IMG/VR virus record: IMGVR_UViG_3300037839_000350
Location: 1 to 26,287 of that record
Length of the DNA: 26,287 bases
Direction: 5' to 3' (one strand)
Origin: a virus
The position numbers and the translations under genes are program-made. Shown in pieces: positions 4,540 through 24,178 of the stretch. The stretch's first letter is position 1. Each line of letters begins with the position of its first letter. The notes under the pieces are model-generated. The model worked only from the letters and a program-made list of their open reading frames with translations, searched no databases and had not been told where the DNA came from.

Positions 4540-4767
4540 TTACGGAATGATGATCAGGGGTTCGTCAGTTGAAGTTGACTCAGTTGACGTTCCTTCGCTT
4601 GATTCCATTTGCTCAAACCGATTAAGGTATTCTTCGACCATTGGTTTAAGCCGCGAAGTGACAAGATTCTCTAAATCTGTCGCCCCCTCTTTATCCAACC
4701 GAACCTCCATGGTTATTTCTTTTTTCTCAGTATCTTCAGTCACACTAATACGAATTGATGCGCTCAT
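4540..4767 (-). CDS. small acidic protein of unknown function (75 aa)
   Basis: A strong AAAGGAGG lies 9 bases before the ATG, so this start is secure. The product is acidic. The N-terminal half looks like two beta strands (Ser-Ile-Arg-Ile-Ser-Val and Glu-Ile-Thr-Met-Glu-Val), the middle is helical, and the C-terminal tail is rich in Ser/Thr/Glu and likely disordered. The gene ends a few bases before the polymerase start, so it may be a polymerase-linked accessory protein, but only position suggests this. Confidence 0.65.
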   Translation of the reverse strand: MSASIRISVTEDTEKKEITMEVRLDKEGATDLENLVTSRLKPMVEEYLNRFEQMESSEGTSTESTSTDEPLIIIP

Positions 4768-4807
4768 TTTTATTTTCCTCCTTTAGTAAATTTGCGAGTT
4801 CGAATTA

Positions 4808-6326: not shown

Positions 6327-7070
6327 TTACTTTACGAGACCGCGAACGAACTCGATGAAAACGGCATCATGCTTCTTGCCCATCTTCACGGTTGGCACAT
6401 ACCAACTCCCGGCGGAATTGGTCTTAATTTCCGACGTCAGTCCGTAGGTCGCTGTATCAATCCCAGCCTTCAGCGCCATTTGGCTATCGGTGAACAGCTT
6501 CTTAGCTGTCTGGCGGTAGGCCGACTTGGTGAGAAGCCACTGAGCCAGTCCATACGAAGACCCCGCTTGTTCAAATGGGAACAAGGGATGATCCTTCGCC
6601 GGACTTTTCACGAGAACGATACAGGTGAGGGCTTCCGAGTACTTGTCGGAGCCTTCCTCTGCCGTCGGATCGTAGGCCAGCACGCCACCGGCCGCACGTA
6701 CGTCCCGAAGACTTGAGAAGGACTTAGGCATTTCGCCTGAGCCGTAGACGAGGTCTTGGAGGTAGAACTTGTTCATGCGAAGAATCGTGATTTCGCAGGG
6801 AACTTTCCCGTCACCGATGATGACTTCACGATTGTAAACGAACGACCCAGCGGGGAATACGTTCGAGAGTTCGCCAGTCTTCGCCACGAGGTTCATCCGT
6901 GGGATTGCCAGATCCCGTGCGCTGAACTCGCCATTCACCTGTCCATCCACACCTTGGACTTGAAAGGCGAGAGTGTCATTCGGTGTTTCAGCAACTGCTA
7001 AGGCAGAGCTCGATTTGGTTTCCGTTGTTGGTGCTGGGGCCGCGGGGGCCTTCGCAAATGATGTTTTCAT
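6327..7070 (-). CDS. putative ssDNA-binding or annealing protein (247 aa)
   Basis: The first 25-30 residues are a flexible Ala/Pro/Thr/Lys-rich tail, followed by a compact beta-rich domain that opens with Ala-Ile-Pro-Arg-Met-Asn-Leu-Val. An 'IPRxNLVxKxGEL' segment of this sort, followed by a strand set and a C-terminal 'GSWYVPTVK' region, occurs in phage proteins placed beside RecB-like nucleases and helicases and often annotated as single-stranded-DNA-associated. I have no motif that proves DNA binding. Placement directly after the DUF2800 nuclease and SNF2 helicase supports a recombination or replication role. An AAGGA lies 12 bases before the ATG in an A-rich leader. Confidence 0.55.
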   Translation of the reverse strand: MKTSFAKAPAAPAPTTETKSSSALAVAETPNDTLAFQVQGVDGQVNGEFSARDLAIPRMNLVAKTGELSNVFPAGSFVYNREVIIGDGKVPCEITILRMNKFYLQDLVYGSGEMPKSFSSLRDVRAAGGVLAYDPTAEEGSDKYSEALTCIVLVKSPAKDHPLFPFEQAGSSYGLAQWLLTKSAYRQTAKKLFTDSQMALKAGIDTATYGLTSEIKTNSAGSWYVPTVKMGKKHDAVFIEFVRGLVK

Positions 7071-7089: not shown

Positions 7090-7953
7090 TTATTTTTGTT
7101 TTATTCTTTGCAAATAGGCGATCTCCCCACCACCCTGGAGGACTCCAGCATCGGTGAGTTTATCTTCTATCTCCTGTGCGACTGCCGCTTTTGACCCTCG
7201 CGGGGCTTTGGCGGAGTACGCTTTCAGAAGTTGTGCTGCCGAAACTTCGCATACGGCTGCGAACTCTTCGGGGGTGAGTCGGTCTTTAACCAACTCAAAA
7301 GTGATTTGGGCATCGGTAATGGTGCGCCGTCCCGAGCGATGCTTTATCTCGAAGCCAGGGATGTCTTCACCAGTCTCGATCGCGAACTGAGTGTTTTCCT
7401 TTCGAACTCTGTCGCACCAGGGTTCGAGAACACGTCGTAGAATCTCTGCCTTCCCGCGAAGCTCAGGAGTAGCGAGTTGTTCGGGATTATATAGGTCGAT
7501 GAGTTCAGAGTCGGGTGTCAGCTCAACGAACTTAGAGGAGATGATGAGTGCCTTTTTATGTAAGGCGAGGCAGGTAGCTTTCGCCCCGCAGTACATACAC
7601 GCGTATTCGCTCGGCCTGAGTTCTTTAGTATCGTGTTTCGCGCGAGCAATTACGGTACTTACTCTTAACTTCATTTTGTCAAAATCAGCAGAACGAAAGA
7701 AAGCGTGTCGGCTTACACTATTCAACCGAGGCTGGGCGAAGACTACTTCCACCATTTGCACTTCGGGGTATTTCTCAAAGACCCCGATCGCGTACGCCCA
7801 CCCTTGCAAGTTGAACTCTGCGTCCTCGACGGGTTGCCACCCGAACTTGGCATCTGCAATGATGGCTCGATCGGCCTTCATCATCACGACGTCTGCCGTA
7901 CCAAAAGTAAGCCCGTTGCAGATTGAGAGCTTAAGCTCTTTTGAAATTGTCAT
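7090..7953 (-). CDS. DUF2800/RecB-type nuclease, catalytic C-terminal part (287 aa)
   Basis: This ORF carries the core PD-(D/E)XK residues of a RecB-like nuclease: Gly-Thr-Ala-Asp21, then Asp34-Ala-Lys36 and Gln50 in a Gln-Gly-Trp-Ala-Tyr-Ala helix. It also has a Cys119-x2-Cys122-x5-Cys128 cluster of the kind that binds an iron-sulfur cluster in AddB/Cas4 relatives. The domain's N-terminal section is encoded in the overlapping upstream ORF (7931-8173), in a different frame. I chose ATG 7951-7953 because GAGGAA lies 7 bases upstream. The frame is open back to ATG 7989 (299 aa), without a better ribosome site. The enzyme probably acts as a recombination exonuclease with the SNF2 and RuvC-like proteins. 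Confidence 0.8.
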   Translation of the reverse strand: MTISKELKLSICNGLTFGTADVVMMKADRAIIADAKFGWQPVEDAEFNLQGWAYAIGVFEKYPEVQMVEVVFAQPRLNSVSRHAFFRSADFDKMKLRVSTVIARAKHDTKELRPSEYACMYCGAKATCLALHKKALIISSKFVELTPDSELIDLYNPEQLATPELRGKAEILRRVLEPWCDRVRKENTQFAIETGEDIPGFEIKHRSGRRTITDAQITFELVKDRLTPEEFAAVCEVSAAQLLKAYSAKAPRGSKAAVAQEIEDKLTDAGVLQGGGEIAYLQRIKQK

Positions 7954-8173
7954 TTTGTAATTCCTCTTCAAGCGCTTTGAATAAGTCATTGACCATTGTG
8001 ACGCAACGCAACTGCTCCTCGTTCAACCCAGAGAAATCACCGGTCTCCAGAGCCTTGTGCATCATCGTGCCTTCCTCAGCTGCCGCAGAAGATGATCCGC
8101 TATCGGGTTGCCATCCGGCACAAGCTTCCCGATACATTAATTGCGATGGTGAAAATTGGTGGTGGGTACTCAT
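7931..8173 (-). CDS. DUF2800/RecB-type nuclease, detached N-terminal part (80 aa)
   Basis: The ATG overlaps the stop of the SNF2 gene (ATGA, 8170-8173). The product matches the start of DUF2800 nucleases: Phe-Ser-Pro-Ser-Gln-Leu opening, Cys18, and Ala-Glu-Glu-Gly-Thr-Met-Met-His39-Lys-Ala-Leu-Glu, where the His is the motif I metal-site residue of the RecB nuclease family and the Cys would be the first iron-sulfur ligand. It stops at TAA 7931-7933 in the middle of the domain, and the rest follows in the +1 frame. Either two chains assemble, a frameshift joins them, or the sequence has an error. Confidence 0.75.
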   Translation of the reverse strand: MSTHHQFSPSQLMYREACAGWQPDSGSSSAAAEEGTMMHKALETGDFSGLNEEQLRCVTMVNDLFKALEEELQNDNFKRA

Positions 8174-9435
8174 AGTGTTTCTAGATCTCCGTCATTGAGC
8201 GTTTCAATGTTCTTTAGTTTCGAGCGAACTCGCTTCATAACCTTTTCCTCGATCGATCCGTCTGCAAAAACAATTTGTTGTACACTTTTAGAAAGTGATC
8301 CAGCTCGGTGAATTCGTCCGAGAGCTTGCTTCAAATCGATTGCGGAATACGTCGGACAAATCAGGGAACTGCGAGGGCGTCCATTTAAGTCGTGGAGTGA
8401 GAGACCAACTCCGCCGGACTGTATCTGACAAAAAATATTAGGAACTTCGTTGCTCTGGAAACGGTCAATGGCTTCTTTTCTTTCTTCTTCAGTTTGTCCT
8501 CCTATGACCATCGAGGAGTCTGGCACTTCCTGACAAAGGCTGTCAAGGGAATTCCGAAAGTTACAAAAAACAACCACGCTTCGACCTTCATCGTTTAAGG
8601 AGCGAACGAGATCAACCAACACCGGAACGCGGAGTAGCTCAGCTTCCTGCCTCGCCCGCAGAATCTCCGTCATTGGGTGGGGCTTGTCGGAAGCTTTGCT
8701 TTGCTCCAGCTCAGCCAACCTGTCTGCGAGATCCTTCCAGATTGCGTCTACATCGCCACAATCATAGCTGATGCAGTGGACTTCATTGTCGGGGAAGGCG
8801 TCACCAAGATCCGAGATGCGTACGCGAGAAGCCTTAGAGGCTATCGCTTGGTGGATCTCTGCCAGCTTGGGCTTGCCACCGAAATAAGCGAAAGCGCCCC
8901 ACGGGGCTTTCTTAACTCCGTTCTTCAAGAGCCATGGGAAAAAGTCTGTATACTTGTGGAGGCCGAGAAGAAAACCCGTGGCCTTCATATCCATAGGGTT
9001 GCTCGCAAAAGTTGCCGAAAGCATGAGAGTATAAAAGGGACCAGATTGGATAAGCATTTTTCCGTTTAGGGAGTTGGGACCTTTGCACCGATGGACTTCG
9101 TCCCAAATTAACAGCGTTCCCTCGGCCAGCCCCGACCAGCACCACATGCCGCCCGTGAAATCACCATACTCCGTAGACCCCGCACGGAGCTTCTCGTAAT
9201 TTAAAATGAAGGTGGGGGTTAGCTTTGCCGTCTTACACCATTCCTTCCACGTTGGGATCACTGCCTTGGGGCAGATGATAGCGAAAGGCTTGCCTAGTTC
9301 TCGGGCTACCCAGACTGCTTTAGCCGTCTTACCAGTGCCAGTATCGCTCCAGTCGGCTGCCACCCGATGCTCACGCAGAGAACCCAGCAAAGCTTCGGCA
9401 GAAGGCTTCTGCCAGTCGTAGAGTTCGAGCATCAC
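8170..9435 (-). CDS. SNF2-family DNA helicase/translocase (421 aa)
   Basis: This protein is an ATP-driven superfamily 2 translocase, probably remodelling DNA for phage recombination or replication. Motif I is Asp31-Thr-Gly-Thr-Gly-Lys-Thr37, Ia follows as Ile-Ile-Cys-Pro-Lys-Ala, motif II is WDEVH (111-115), and motif III is SAT (140-142). The second RecA domain has VVVFCNF (287-293), IQSGGVGLSL (338-347) and motif VI QALGRIHRAG (370-379). It is shorter than cellular SNF2 proteins, as is usual in phages. The start is GTG 9433-9435 or ATG 9430-9432, both overlapping the RuvC-like stop. Confidence 0.92.
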   Translation of the reverse strand: MMLELYDWQKPSAEALLGSLREHRVAADWSDTGTGKTAKAVWVARELGKPFAIICPKAVIPTWKEWCKTAKLTPTFILNYEKLRAGSTEYGDFTGGMWCWSGLAEGTLLIWDEVHRCKGPNSLNGKMLIQSGPFYTLMLSATFASNPMDMKATGFLLGLHKYTDFFPWLLKNGVKKAPWGAFAYFGGKPKLAEIHQAIASKASRVRISDLGDAFPDNEVHCISYDCGDVDAIWKDLADRLAELEQSKASDKPHPMTEILRARQEAELLRVPVLVDLVRSLNDEGRSVVVFCNFRNSLDSLCQEVPDSSMVIGGQTEEERKEAIDRFQSNEVPNIFCQIQSGGVGLSLHDLNGRPRSSLICPTYSAIDLKQALGRIHRAGSLSKSVQQIVFADGSIEEKVMKRVRSKLKNIETLNDGDLETL

Positions 9436-17988: not shown

Positions 17989-18326
17989 AACGCTGGCTCA
18001 AAACTAGCGTCCAGGGTCTGTTGGCTTTAGCAGTCGCTATCATCATATTCTTCTTCCTTGGCCCAATCCTTCAGGGCTTTGACTCCACCGCAGGCGTAGT
18101 GGATCTAGGTAGTCTCCACGTCCTTGCCTTCGGTGGCGTCCGATTTCTCTTTTGTACTTTCCTAGCCTGGTCGGTGCTCCAGCTAGATTGGAGTATTTTA
18201 GACGGTTATATTGACCGAGGGCTATTGAAGGACGACTGGAATGATGCGTTCCCAAAGACGAGGCTAACTATTTTCGCCACCGTCTACGGTGTTCTGCTTC
18301 TCGCAGCCATCCTATCGTGCAAATAA
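17985..18326 (+). CDS. three-span membrane protein, holin candidate (113 aa)
   Basis: The GTG at 17985 overlaps the stop of the u-spanin gene (GTGA). The protein has three hydrophobic segments: about 10-28 (Leu-Leu-Ala-Leu-Ala-Val-Ala-Ile-Ile-Ile), about 41-66, and about 91-110 near the C-terminus. A short basic start and a polar loop with Asp and Arg lie between the second and third. Size and topology fit class I-like holins. It directly precedes the endolysin with a 10-base overlap. Holin function is inferred from topology and context. Confidence 0.6.
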   Translation: MKRWLKTSVQGLLALAVAIIIFFFLGPILQGFDSTAGVVDLGSLHVLAFGGVRFLFCTFLAWSVLQLDWSILDGYIDRGLLKDDWNDAFPKTRLTIFATVYGVLLLAAILSCK

Positions 18327-18841
18327 AATATGCGATTCTTATTGCGCTTCTTACCTACCCGTTGGTTGGTTGGGGAACTGCGCCGTCGCGGGAGCTCGTC
18401 ATTGAACAGGCTAGACAAGCTATCGGCATCCGGGAAGCCACAGGCCGCAACGACGGGTCCGTGGTGGACGAAATCTTATCATCCGTAGATCTTGCCGGGA
18501 CTAAAGCCCCTTGGTGTGCTGCCTTCGTTGTTTGGATAGGGGACAAGGCTTTTACGAGACCCTTCAACCCATACCCCCGAACCGCTTGGTCCCCGATAAT
18601 GCTAGTTCGCCCAACCTGGGATCGACAAAGAAGGGGAGTACCACTCAAACCAGCTGACGTCTTTGGGATCTGGTTCAACTCGATGGGACGAGTGGCACAC
18701 GTTGGTCTTGTGGAGAAAAACGAAGGGGAGTGGTTAGTTACTATCGAGGGCAATACCAATGGTGGTGGCTTACGAGACGGTGACGGGGTCTACAGACGCC
18801 GTAGGCTGGCTTCTAACGTATTGGGGAGGTCTTGGCTATGA
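18317..18841 (+). CDS. exported cysteine-peptidase (CHAP/NlpC-like) endolysin (174 aa)
   Basis: This enzyme would cleave peptidoglycan amide or peptide bonds. The first 22 residues look like a Sec signal: basic Lys4, a hydrophobic core Ile-Leu-Ile-Ala-Leu-Leu, then Gly-Trp-Gly-Thr-Ala as a possible cleavage site. The catalytic Cys is in Ala-Pro-Trp-Cys67-Ala-Ala-Phe, the His in Val-Ala-His128-Val-Gly, and the third residue in Ile-Glu144-Gly-Asn146, as in CHAP-type peptidases. GTG 18317 is in frame with these features and overlaps the holin stop. A signal peptide implies that export does not need a large holin pore. Confidence 0.8.
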   Translation: MQIKYAILIALLTYPLVGWGTAPSRELVIEQARQAIGIREATGRNDGSVVDEILSSVDLAGTKAPWCAAFVVWIGDKAFTRPFNPYPRTAWSPIMLVRPTWDRQRRGVPLKPADVFGIWFNSMGRVAHVGLVEKNEGEWLVTIEGNTNGGGLRDGDGVYRRRRLASNVLGRSWL

Positions 18842-19257
18842 GCCTACGTATTGGAGCCGTCGGGGTTCAAAAGGTATCGGCTAAGTTGCTCGAGAACGGT
18901 TTCTTGGTGTCACTTCCGATCTTTGATGAGGGCTATGACATGATCTCTGATTGGAAGGGGAGATTACAGCGTGTCCAAGTTAAATCTACTGGTGGCCAGA
19001 AAAATATGGAAAATCGTACAAAACTAAAGTTTCTTGCCGCTCGTGGCCCTGGCTACATACCCAGTAGTAATAAGCATGGTGTAAAAGAGACGTATGGTAA
19101 GAGCGATTGCGATGCTTTCATTTTTTATCACATTCCTCTCGATGCCCTTTTCGTAGTTCCACGAATCCGCCTACCCAAAACCAAGTCGATCTACCTACCG
19201 CCGAATTCTCTTTGGAGAGATAACTGGGACGTCTTGCGCAATTTTAAGAAGGGGTAA
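18838..19257 (+). CDS. stand-alone PD-(D/E)XK nuclease-like protein (139 aa)
   Basis: The ATG overlaps the endolysin stop (ATGA, 18838-18841) and has GGGGAGG eight bases upstream. The core is Gly-Phe-Leu-Val-Ser-Leu-Pro, then Tyr-Asp34-Met-Ile and Val-Gln47-Val-Lys49-Ser, the D-(about 12)-QXK pattern of PD-(D/E)XK endonucleases, including archaeal Hjc-like and PDDEXK_5 types. The usual N-terminal Glu of the helix is Val here (Gly-Ala-Val-Gly-Val). The protein lies between lysis and tail genes, where a nuclease is unexpected. It may be a free-standing selfish or homing-type element, or a packaging or resolution helper. Confidence 0.7.
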   Translation: MSLRIGAVGVQKVSAKLLENGFLVSLPIFDEGYDMISDWKGRLQRVQVKSTGGQKNMENRTKLKFLAARGPGYIPSSNKHGVKETYGKSDCDAFIFYHIPLDALFVVPRIRLPKTKSIYLPPNSLWRDNWDVLRNFKKG

Positions 19258-21681: not shown

Positions 21682-21860
21682 GCGAAGAATGCCAAGTCCT
21701 TGAGTGCGGTTGTTTCCAAGGCACATTTTCACAGATCGTTTACGGGGTTATCGAGGTAAGGGATTATCTTGCTGACGAAACTGGTATTGAGTTCTCCGTC
21801 GAAAACCCCCCAGAGTCTGGGTTTCAGCTGATTGATGGCGAATTTCTGGAGCTAAACTGA
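21678..21860 (+). CDS. small cysteine-containing protein (60 aa)
   Basis: The ATG at 21678 overlaps the stop of the 804-aa gene (ATGA), and its own TGA overlaps the next ATG (TGATG). The N-terminus is Cys-rich (Glu-Cys-Gln-Val-Leu-Glu-Cys-Gly-Cys), then the protein becomes acidic and ends Gly-Glu-Phe-Leu-Glu-Leu-Asn. An in-frame TTG at 21672 would add two residues. I recognise no family. It could be a small structural or chaperone protein for the tail. Confidence 0.55.
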   Translation: MSEECQVLECGCFQGTFSQIVYGVIEVRDYLADETGIEFSVENPPESGFQLIDGEFLELN

Positions 21861-22663
21861 TGAGCACCAAAATCAGTTTGCTCGCTGAAGCTACAGCTCC
21901 AACAGAGAATGTCCTTCTCCCAATGCTGGTTAGCGGAGTTACCCGAAAAACTTTCCTTTCAAATGTCCTTAGCCTCGTTACAGGCGGAACTGCTATTGCG
22001 GAAAACGTGACTGGCGGAACAAATATATCAGTAGTTTCTGCTGGAGTCTCCTCAACCAAACAACTAACTATTTCCTTTGACCTTCCCGGATTAATCGTCC
22101 CCTATTCTGGTCCCGACTCTTCAGTTCCCGCTAGTTGGCTCTTTTGTAACGGACAAGCTGTTTTACGATCTGGAATTTCGGGTTATCCCAGTTTGTTTGC
22201 GGTAATTGGCACGACATACGGGAGTGGGGACGGCACAACTACATTCAATGTTCCCGACCTGCGCGGTAGAATTCCTTTTGGCAAAGCTACCGGCTCTGGC
22301 TCCTCGAGCCCCTTAAATGGCGCAAGTTTTTCATCGGGCAACTTTTATACTCTGGCTTCTGCTGGTGGCGAGGAGACCCATCTTTTAACTTCTGGTCAAA
22401 CACCAGTTAAAGACCACACCCACACTGCTATTGGCACTATGACTGTATATGGTTCTTCCACCGATACCCAAAACTGGGATGACCCTGATACTTCCCCGCC
22501 TGAAAACTATTCCGATAATGGGTTTTTAGGTGAGGTCGCACCCGGAACTCAGAAAACAGTATCTTCGACAGGAACATCTTCTGCTCTCTCCCCCGCCAAT
22601 GCTTCGCTTTCACATACTAATATACCACCCGTCATAGTTCTGAATTATCTAATCAAAACTTAA
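21860..22663 (+). CDS. tail-collar domain protein 1 (267 aa)
   Basis: This is the first of three tandem paralogues. It has an N-terminal domain of about 40 residues (Ile-Ser-Leu-Leu-Ala ... Pro-Met-Leu-Val-Ser-Gly-Val-Thr-Arg-Lys) shared with the next two genes, probably an anchor to the tail. A phage tail-collar domain follows: Trp93-Leu-Phe-Cys-Asn-Gly and Phe-Asn-Val-Pro-Asp-Leu-Arg-Gly-Arg-Ile (129-138). A His-Thr-His cluster comes after. The C-terminus ends Asn-Ile-Pro-Pro-Val-Ile-Val-Leu-Asn-Tyr-Leu-Ile-Lys, as in collar and microcystin-dependent proteins. It probably forms a receptor-binding or short fibre tip. Confidence 0.8.
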   Translation: MSTKISLLAEATAPTENVLLPMLVSGVTRKTFLSNVLSLVTGGTAIAENVTGGTNISVVSAGVSSTKQLTISFDLPGLIVPYSGPDSSVPASWLFCNGQAVLRSGISGYPSLFAVIGTTYGSGDGTTTFNVPDLRGRIPFGKATGSGSSSPLNGASFSSGNFYTLASAGGEETHLLTSGQTPVKDHTHTAIGTMTVYGSSTDTQNWDDPDTSPPENYSDNGFLGEVAPGTQKTVSSTGTSSALSPANASLSHTNIPPVIVLNYLIKT

Positions 22664-22664
22664 T

Positions 22665-23414
22665 ATGCCTAATTTCAAGATCACCGACCTCACAACTTCT
22701 TCCTTTGTCACGGAGGACTCTGTTATGCCATGCGTTCAGAACGGAGTCACAAAACAAATATCCGTTCTCCAGATTAAAGAATATTTGGATGATGGAACGG
22801 TAACCGCAATCTCTCCTGGCCCAGGGCTTCTGTGCAACCCAAACCCAATCACAAGTTCTGGGGTAATTTCTTTCGAGTCACCCGGTTTGATGTCTCTTTA
22901 CGCAGGCTCAGCCGACCCCTCTGGGTGGCTCATCTGCGATGGTCGATCCCTCCTTGTTGCTAGCTACCAGCCTTTGTTTAACCAAATCAGTTACGTATAT
23001 GGGGGTTCGGGCTTAAATTTCAATTTACCTAACCTTATGGGTAGAGCCGTCTTTGGTTTGGACGATATGGGATCAGGAGCGGCTGGGCGGGTTACGATTG
23101 CGGGAGCGTCTACTCTTGGTCTTTCGGCTGGTTTCCGGGAACATACTTTAACAGTTGAACAAGCCCCTTTAAATAGCCACACCCATTCTGTCCCTGGTTC
23201 TTTTTCTGTTGTGGCCGACCCAAGGAGAACAGGGAACAACGATAGCTTATCTACTGGATACCCAAGACACGGCTTTAACACGTCTTCTGGCGCTGCCTCC
23301 ACGTCCCTCACTTTAACTATTGCTCCGTCATCTTCCGCTGGAAGTATCCCAGCGACAACACCGCATCCAAACCTCCCGCCCTTCTTGTTACTTAACTGGA
23401 TTATCAAAATATGA
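22665..23414 (+). CDS. tail-collar domain protein 2 (249 aa)
   Basis: This is the second paralogue, starting one base after the previous stop. The same anchor pattern appears (Met-Pro-Cys-Val-Gln-Asn-Gly-Val-Thr-Lys). The collar core is Gly-Trp-Leu-Ile-Cys-Asp-Gly and Leu-Pro-Asn-Leu-Met-Gly-Arg, where Asn and Met replace the usual Asp and Arg, so this copy is the most divergent of the three in the motif. His-Thr-His follows near residue 168. The end is His-Pro-Asn-Leu-Pro-Pro-Phe-Leu-Leu-Leu-Asn-Trp-Ile-Ile-Lys-Ile. It probably forms a mixed tip with its neighbours. Confidence 0.8.
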   Translation: MPNFKITDLTTSSFVTEDSVMPCVQNGVTKQISVLQIKEYLDDGTVTAISPGPGLLCNPNPITSSGVISFESPGLMSLYAGSADPSGWLICDGRSLLVASYQPLFNQISYVYGGSGLNFNLPNLMGRAVFGLDDMGSGAAGRVTIAGASTLGLSAGFREHTLTVEQAPLNSHTHSVPGSFSVVADPRRTGNNDSLSTGYPRHGFNTSSGAASTSLTLTIAPSSSAGSIPATTPHPNLPPFLLLNWIIKI

Positions 23415-24178
23415 GAATTTCTTACCTCCCTGAAGTAGCAAGTCCAACGGGCACCACTTTCTTCCCAGTATCCTCTGCGGGTGTTTCTAAAAAAGTGTCT
23501 CTACTTACTCTTAGCAACAACTGGCCCTCAGCGGGTAATATTTCAAAGATCTATTCGGGTCCCAACGTTCAGCTCTTACCCACCACCTTATCAACTACCG
23601 GGGTTGCTAGCTTTTATTTCCCTGGTTCTCTGTATCCATTTCCGGGATCTAGCATACCTTCTGGGTGGCTTTCTTGCGAAGGTCAAGCCGTCAGCCGAGT
23701 TACCTACAAAAATCTTTATAATACTATCGGTGTGATTTACGGGCCGGGCGACAACCGAACCACTTTTAATCTTCCCGACTTGCGGGGTAGATCCATTGCG
23801 GGTCTTGAGACTATGGGTGGGCTTAGCTCCTCCAACCGATTAACCAACTCACGGCCGAGCAGTGTTAACGCATCCGTTTTGGGAAATACTGGGGGAACCC
23901 AATCCTACGCGCTCTCCGCGCAAGAGGTCGGTTTAAACCCACACACGCATAGCCACTCATTAACTGTAAGTTGGGGTGGCGGCACAGAAAATGGGAACAC
24001 AGGCAATGGCGCGGATGCTGGGTACGCTGGACGTTGGCCTGCTGGTGCTTCGCTGGGTAGCACTTATACCCTAACCTGGAGTTATACATTTACTAATAAC
24101 GCAACCTCTAATTCGTCTTCTAGCCTTCACCCAAACCTACCCCCTCTTGTGTTTTTAAAATGGGTTATAAAGTACTGA
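23411..24178 (+). CDS. tail-collar domain protein 3 (255 aa)
   Basis: This is the third paralogue. Its ATG overlaps the stop of copy 2 (ATGA, 23411-23414). The anchor region has Phe-Pro-Val-Ser-Ser-Ala-Gly-Val-Ser-Lys-Lys, and the collar core is Gly-Trp-Leu-Ser-Cys-Glu-Gly and Phe-Asn-Leu-Pro-Asp-Leu-Arg-Gly-Arg. A His-Thr-His-Ser-His cluster and a Gly/Ser/Thr/Asn-rich variable region come before the end, His-Pro-Asn-Leu-Pro-Pro-Leu-Val-Phe-Leu-Lys-Trp-Val-Ile-Lys-Tyr. The variable region differs most from the other copies, which fits receptor-binding divergence. Confidence 0.8.
   Translation: MRISYLPEVASPTGTTFFPVSSAGVSKKVSLLTLSNNWPSAGNISKIYSGPNVQLLPTTLSTTGVASFYFPGSLYPFPGSSIPSGWLSCEGQAVSRVTYKNLYNTIGVIYGPGDNRTTFNLPDLRGRSIAGLETMGGLSSSNRLTNSRPSSVNASVLGNTGGTQSYALSAQEVGLNPHTHSHSLTVSWGGGTENGNTGNGADAGYAGRWPAGASLGSTYTLTWSYTFTNNATSNSSSSLHPNLPPLVFLKWVIKY

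What the first reader, a model, noticed from the sequence alone, without database searches (positions are those of the whole stretch)
7090..8173. DUF2800/RecB-type nuclease split into two overlapping ORFs
The N-terminal motif (Glu-Gly-Thr-x-x-His and a Cys) is in an 80-aa ORF and the catalytic Asp, Asp-x-Lys, Gln and three-Cys cluster are in the next ORF, read in the +1 frame. The overlap runs from 7931 to 7989. A GAGGAA lies 7 bases before an ATG (7951-7953) in the second frame, so two chains could be made and must then assemble both the active site and an iron-sulfur cluster. A +1 frameshift or a sequence error would explain it as well. If real, this is a two-piece nuclease in a family normally found as one chain.
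Basis: partly seen in the sequence, partly recalled or inferred. Interest (0 to 1): 0.6.

Follow-up and report, generated by a model that had tools for sequence, protein, structure and literature searches.

The report
Phage DNA-cutting enzyme in two pieces
A family of uncultured phages makes a DNA-trimming enzyme, one chain in nearly every other phage, as two separately started protein pieces; six related phages keep exactly the same break and a sister group seems to have joined the pieces again, so the break is not a sequencing error.

Summary
On the minus strand, an 80-aa ORF (8173-7931) carries the N-terminal Cys and the EGTxxH motif. A second ORF in the +1 frame carries D, DxK, QxxxY and the C-x2-C-x5-C cluster (DUF2800, E=1e-22). 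Five other IMG/VR phage contigs, whose second chain is 77-80% identical, have the same split at the same point. Chain 1 is always 80 aa from the shared start, the conserved ATG always lies 23 nt before the end of chain 1's stop codon, and purine-rich Shine-Dalgarno-like sequence precedes it. So this is neither a sequencing error nor a decaying gene: in the L004-L005 pair both chains are under purifying selection (dN/dS 0.02 and 0.04). A +1 frameshift is unlikely: the only slippery tetramer is missing in two members, and no conserved RNA structure supports one. Single-chain relatives exist at about 72% and 52% identity. A predicted structure places the break in the loop between the last N-terminal helix and the first core strand. 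Trees of neighbouring genes reject the split phages as one clade. The simplest history is one fission, kept across three lineages, then re-fusion in one. Mechanism: two chains by coupled translation, assembling one RecB/Cas4-type nuclease (assembly inferred).

The parts
7931..8173 (-). Chain 1 (80 aa): three N-terminal helices of a DUF2800 / RecB-Cas4-type nuclease, with Cys18 (8122-8120) and the EGTMMH motif (8074-8057)
   Evidence: ORF; phrog_69 exonuclease hit; conserved in 5 other split contigs, exactly 80 aa from the common start; dN/dS 0.016 in L004-L005
7090..7953 (-). Chain 2 (287 aa from the conserved ATG): PD-(D/E)XK core with GTAD (7902-7891), DAK (7854-7846), QGWAY (7806-7792) and the CxxCx5C cluster (7599-7570)
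   Evidence: Pfam DUF2800 1e-22; conserved in 5 other split contigs; dN/dS 0.042 in L004-L005
7961..7966 (-). Shine-Dalgarno-like GAGGAA, 7 nt before the chain-2 ATG, inside chain 1
   Evidence: anti-SD pairing -6.0 kcal/mol here and -4.3 to -11.7 in the other five
7951..7953 (-). Chain-2 start codon ATG, invariant in all six split members
7931..7953 (-). Overlap of chain 1 and chain 2 (23 nt from ATG to end of the chain-1 TAA), same length in all six
8170..9435 (-). Upstream SNF2-type helicase; its TGA overlaps the chain-1 ATG (ATGA), so chain 1 is itself likely translationally coupled

Best explanation
The gene for a DUF2800 nuclease (RecB/Cas4-type PD-(D/E)XK fold with a four-cysteine metal site) was split in an ancestor of these phages by a frame-changing length change in the loop between the third helix and the first core strand. 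The GAG-GAA/G codons already coding Glu-Glu-Leu could serve as a Shine-Dalgarno sequence for an ATG 7 nt downstream, so the distal part became a separately started chain. Ribosomes translate chain 1 (80 aa), stop at TAA, and initiate or re-initiate chain 2 (287-288 aa) at the overlapping ATG. The two chains then associate without a covalent link. Chain 1 supplies the motif-I His and one Cys; chain 2 supplies D, DxK, QxxxY and three Cys. Together they form one nuclease that probably trims DNA ends for phage replication or recombination, next to the SNF2 helicase, RuvC-like resolvase and PolA genes. Shown: the split, its conservation, selection on both chains, the loop position in a predicted structure, and intact relatives. 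Inferred: separate translation, assembly, metal cluster and cellular role.
For: Six contigs share the split with fixed geometry: a 19-nt linker, ATG 23 nt from the end of the stop, and chain 1 of exactly 80 aa from the common start. The ATG is invariant, with SD-like sequence upstream in every member. The upstream +1 frame is closed in L006, so the ATG is the only chain-2 start there. All catalytic and Cys residues are kept across both chains in all six. Purifying selection acts on both chains: L004-L005 chain 1 dN/dS 0.016 (24 synonymous, 2 nonsynonymous codons) and chain 2 0.042 (90 and 15). Each of these records has one DUF2800 locus and no intact second copy. AF2 of the intact L012 protein (pLDDT 84.7) ends helix 3 at residue 72 and starts strand 1 at residue 80, and the split maps to that loop; a read-through window model has the same topology. 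Foldseek finds AdnA, Cas4, ACE1, RecE and MGME1 in the PDB and phage DUF2800 proteins in BFVD. The 7-gene tree places intact L009, L010 and L012 inside the split phages (monophyly rejected, p-AU 1.9e-5), which implies the two-chain state persisted through several lineages.
Against: No expression data. Four of six members keep an AAA-A tetramer before AGA in the overlap, which could support some +1 slippage. Fold matches to solved structures have modest TM-scores (about 0.25-0.41 by query length), and the C-terminal half has lower pLDDT. Chain assembly was not modelled as two separate chains. The SD-like sequence partly follows from the conserved EEL codons, which intact relatives also have.
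Confidence: 0.77

Rival explanations
1. Programmed +1 ribosomal frameshifting (or transcript slippage) within the 23-nt overlap makes one fused nuclease, as in RF2 or antizyme; the ATG and SD-like sequence are incidental or stimulatory.
For: The overlap is conserved. TTC/TTT/TCA-AAA-AGA in window, L004, L005 and L006 lets tRNA-Lys re-pair in the +1 frame. Coupling and recoding can coexist in homologous gene pairs (PMC3711429).
Against: L007/L008 read TCT-ACG-GGA-GCT-TAA with no re-pairing codon and no homopolymer of 4 or more in the overlap. The consensus RNA structure has no covariation support (term +1.42). The chain-2 ATG is invariant, which a frameshift would not require.
Confidence: 0.15
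2. The gene is a degenerating pseudogene: a fixed frameshift, with the remnants not yet lost.
For: Phage genes are often disrupted; intact relatives exist.
Against: Strong purifying selection on both pieces, invariant catalytic residues, and no further disruption in six contigs at 77-80% identity. The split persists through several branchings.
Confidence: 0.05
3. Sequencing or assembly error in the window.
Against: Five other contigs from different metagenome datasets share the identical frame change; two of them have no A-run there.
Confidence: 0.01
4. On the history only: the split arose independently three times from an intact ancestor, instead of once followed by re-fusion.
For: Compatible with the tree shape if intact L009-L012/L066 kept the ancestral state.
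Against: The six junctions are clearly homologous (NNN-[AG]ATGA[CT]NATT..., 19 nt), while intact relatives have unrelated 33- or 24-nt linkers. Two changes suffice on the trees.
Confidence: 0.1

Closest known systems
DUF2800 (PF10926) / phrog_69 phage exonucleases
   Same: Sequence family, motifs, four Cys and replication neighbourhood (PolA); the single-chain L009-L012 proteins are direct homologues at about 72% identity
   Different: Single chain of about 350-430 aa in the relatives examined, including Escherichia phage vB_EcoM-689R2, Caulobacter phage GB2A and Bordetella phage vB_BbrP_003; here two chains
Cas4 / AddB 'iron-staple' nucleases (PMC3466216)
   Same: RecB-type nuclease with one N-terminal Cys and three later Cys; fold match to Cas4 and AdnA
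   Different: Those are one chain; DUF2800 is a separate sequence family; the metal is untested (the related DUF3799 structure 3L0A has zinc, per PMC3466216)
Split phage enzymes: Aeh1 NrdA-a/NrdA-b, phage 25 gp43A/43B, T4 topoisomerase large subunit (PMC2988022, PMC3653736)
   Same: One ancestral chain encoded as two polypeptides that must reassemble; shown functional for Aeh1 NrdA and phage 25 polymerase
   Different: Those splits are tied to homing endonuclease or other inserted sequence; here no insert, only a short overlap, and an apparent re-fusion in a sister branch
Translationally coupled overlapping gene pairs (PMC10666635, PMC3711429)
   Same: Overlapping co-directed genes, enriched for subunits of one complex
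   Different: Usual overlaps are 1, 4 or 8 nt with longer ones rare; here 23 nt, with an internal SD-like sequence

Membership tests
DUF2800 (PF10926) | Profile match above curated cut-off | tested here: met
   Chain 2: 81.3 bits against cut-off 21
DUF2800 (PF10926) | Full-length single chain including the N-terminal ~100 positions | tested here: not met
   N-terminal part is in a separate ORF; chain 1 alone gives no Pfam hit but hits phrog_69 N-terminally
RecB/Cas4-type PD-(D/E)XK nuclease | Motifs: His (EGTxxH), D, [DE]xK, QxxxY | tested here: met
   All present, divided over two chains, in six of six
RecB/Cas4-type PD-(D/E)XK nuclease | Fold | tested here: met
   PDB matches AdnA, Cas4, ACE1, RecE, MGME1 at prob about 1.00 but modest TM
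RecB/Cas4-type PD-(D/E)XK nuclease | Nuclease activity | not testable with these tools
   needs biochemistry
Iron-staple (AddB/Cas4) Fe-S nucleases | Four Cys: one N-terminal, then C-x2-C-x5-C | tested here: met
   Cys18 of chain 1; CMYCGAKATC in chain 2
Iron-staple (AddB/Cas4) Fe-S nucleases | Bound Fe-S cluster | not testable with these tools
   zinc is an alternative
Programmed +1 frameshift gene | Conserved slippery site | tested here: not met
   AAA-A present in 4 of 6, absent in L007/L008
Programmed +1 frameshift gene | Conserved stimulatory RNA structure | tested here: inconclusive
   No covariation support (term +1.42), but only six sequences
Translationally coupled gene pair | Conserved co-location of downstream start and upstream stop | tested here: met
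   ATG 23 nt from end of stop in six of six
Translationally coupled gene pair | Dependence of chain 2 synthesis on chain 1 translation | not testable with these tools
   needs reporter constructs

The most novel reading that the evidence does not exclude
A trans-assembled RecB/Cas4-type nuclease: one catalytic residue and one of four metal-ligand cysteines come from a separate 80-aa subunit. It arose by a short frame-changing fission without any mobile element, was maintained for a long time, and was reversed to a single chain in one phage branch.
Probability: 0.6. Interest if true: 0.6.

Novelty: new variant of a known kind. Interest (0 to 1): 0.47.

Why it matters
If true, it is a natural two-piece nuclease whose active site and metal cluster both straddle a subunit boundary, with natural single-chain versions before and apparently after it. 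That makes a ready test of how gene fission is tolerated and undone in phages, of how a metal site assembles between chains, and gives a natural break point for split RecB/Cas4-type nucleases. It also warns that annotation pipelines may call such genes broken.

Tried and rejected
Sequencing error: rejected by five other contigs. Pseudogene: rejected by dN/dS and motif conservation. Conserved slippery site and RNA structure: not found. Junction DNA pattern scan gave one extra contig, L046, which on reading is an unrelated chance match. Chain 1 against isolate phages: no match. Sequence search of the PDB with the family profile: no match; only the fold search gave relatives. First choices of four-letter word for a read-through model (AATG, CAAA) hit other places in the gene; AATT was unique and was used only to fold and to scan the profile. 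Single-gene trees disagree in detail: helicase, ssb-like and ruvC are weak or conflicting, so the re-fusion claim rests on PolA, chain 1, the concatenations and the shared insertion. With the DUF2800 pieces alone the one-clade test is not significant (p 0.19).

Full report
What is there. The window is a 26,287-base IMG/VR virus record with a replication module on the minus strand: DUF5906 protein, family A DNA polymerase, the finding, an SNF2-type helicase and a RuvC-like resolvase. At the finding, an 80-aa ORF (8173-7931) and a 299-aa ORF (7989-7090) overlap in different frames. The second matches Pfam DUF2800 from its internal ATG onward, lacking the family's first ~100 profile positions; phrog_69 'exonuclease' matches both pieces in order. 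The start used by chain 2 is best taken as ATG 7953, the M conserved in all split relatives.

The split is conserved. Searches of IMG/VR gave five further contigs with the same split: L004 (=L002), L005, L006 (=L003), L007 and L008, 77-80% identical in chain 2. In all six the linker from the Glu-Glu/Gln-Leu codons to the Glu-Leu codons of strand 1 is 19 nt, the chain-2 ATG lies 23 nt before the end of the chain-1 TAA, chain 1 is exactly 80 aa from the common start, and chain 2 is 287-288 aa. An SD-like purine stretch precedes the ATG in each (anti-SD energy -4.3 to -11.7 kcal/mol; other window genes 0 to -11.3). In L006 a TAA closes the chain-2 frame immediately upstream of the ATG. Sequencing error is excluded.

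Both pieces are functional. Between L004 and L005 chain 1 has 24 synonymous and 2 nonsynonymous codon differences (dN/dS 0.016) and chain 2 has 90 and 15 (0.042), like intact relatives (0.05-0.15). dS is saturated for many more distant pairs, so I rely on the close pairs. Cys18 and EGTxxH in chain 1 and GTAD, DAK, QGWAY and CxxCx5C in chain 2 are kept in six of six. Each split record has one DUF2800 locus, so no intact copy covers for the split within the sequence held.

Intact relatives. Single-chain homologues occur in L009, L010, L011, L012 and a Verrucomicrobia MAG contig, L066 (about 72%, 33-nt linker), in the L013-L030 group (about 52%, 24-nt linker where measured), in more distant contigs including Pontiella and Kiritimatiellales genomes, and in isolate phages (418-433 aa). 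The host is probably Verrucomicrobiota (inference from L066-L069).

History. The polymerase tree (p-AU 0.00035), the PolA+DUF2800 concatenation (0.00057) and a seven-gene concatenation (1.9e-5) reject the split phages as one clade. They place the intact L009/L010/L012 group beside L007/L008, inside the split phages. The chain 1 tree (97/93 or 93/92 at the relevant nodes), chain 1 plus chain 2 (97/97), and a one-residue insertion shared by L007/L008 and the intact group but absent from the outgroup (AKDHKPED) agree. Helicase, ssb-like and ruvC trees are weak or conflicting, and the DUF2800 pieces alone do not reject one clade (p 0.19), so recombination cannot be excluded. The simplest reading is one fission followed by one re-fusion (two changes). 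Three independent fissions would have to produce the same homologous 19-nt junction.

Structure. AlphaFold2 of intact L012 (pLDDT 84.7) gives helices 9-17, 30-44 and 52-72, then strand 80-89. The split falls in the loop 73-79, so no helix or strand is cut. A read-through model of the window has the same topology (pLDDT 84.3). Foldseek finds AdnA, Cas4, ACE1, RecE, MGME1 and 3L0A in the PDB with probability near 1 but TM by query length of only about 0.25-0.41, and DUF2800 phage proteins in BFVD. This supports a RecB/Cas4-type nuclease with an AddB/Cas4-like four-Cys site (PMC3466216). The metal may be Fe-S or, as in 3L0A, zinc.

How it works. Two mechanisms could make product. (a) Separate chains by coupled translation: supported by the invariant ATG, SD-like sequence and fixed geometry. 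Overlapping gene pairs are enriched for subunits of complexes, though overlaps this long are unusual (PMC10666635). (b) A +1 frameshift: possible at AAA-A in four members, but L007/L008 have no re-pairing codon, and no RNA structure is supported by covariation. I favour (a) at 0.77. Assembly into one active site is inferred from the shared motifs and selection, by analogy with the functional split Aeh1 NrdA and phage 25 polymerase (PMC2988022).

Novelty. Split phage genes are known, usually tied to inserted homing endonucleases or inteins (PMC3653736; PMC2988022). A split DUF2800 or RecB/Cas4-type nuclease was not found in the papers searched, though that library is partial. I rate it a new variant of a known kind.

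Noticed in passing
window 21860-24178 (+): Three tandem paralogous proteins, each with a Phage Tail Collar domain (PF07484) near the middle; possibly duplicated tail-fibre or receptor-binding genes.
   Followed up: partly
window 18832-19257 (+): A second, unrelated PD-(D/E)XK endonuclease (PDDEXK_5, 1.9e-13) in the structural-gene half, starting at the end of a CHAP-like lysin gene 18317-18841.
   Followed up: no
L066 around 2560-2698: In the Verrucomicrobia MAG contig the otherwise intact DUF2800 ORF has an altered C-terminus, consistent with a frameshift or sequence error there.
   Followed up: no
window 8170-8173 (-): Helicase stop and chain-1 start overlap as ATGA, so the helicase and the two nuclease chains may be translationally coupled in series; L002 has an extra 57-aa ORF (4626-4799) at this junction.
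   Followed up: partly
window 6327-7070 (-): A 247-aa protein beside the nuclease, conserved in nearly all close relatives, with no confident Pfam or PHROG match; possibly a single-strand-binding or annealing protein.
   Followed up: no
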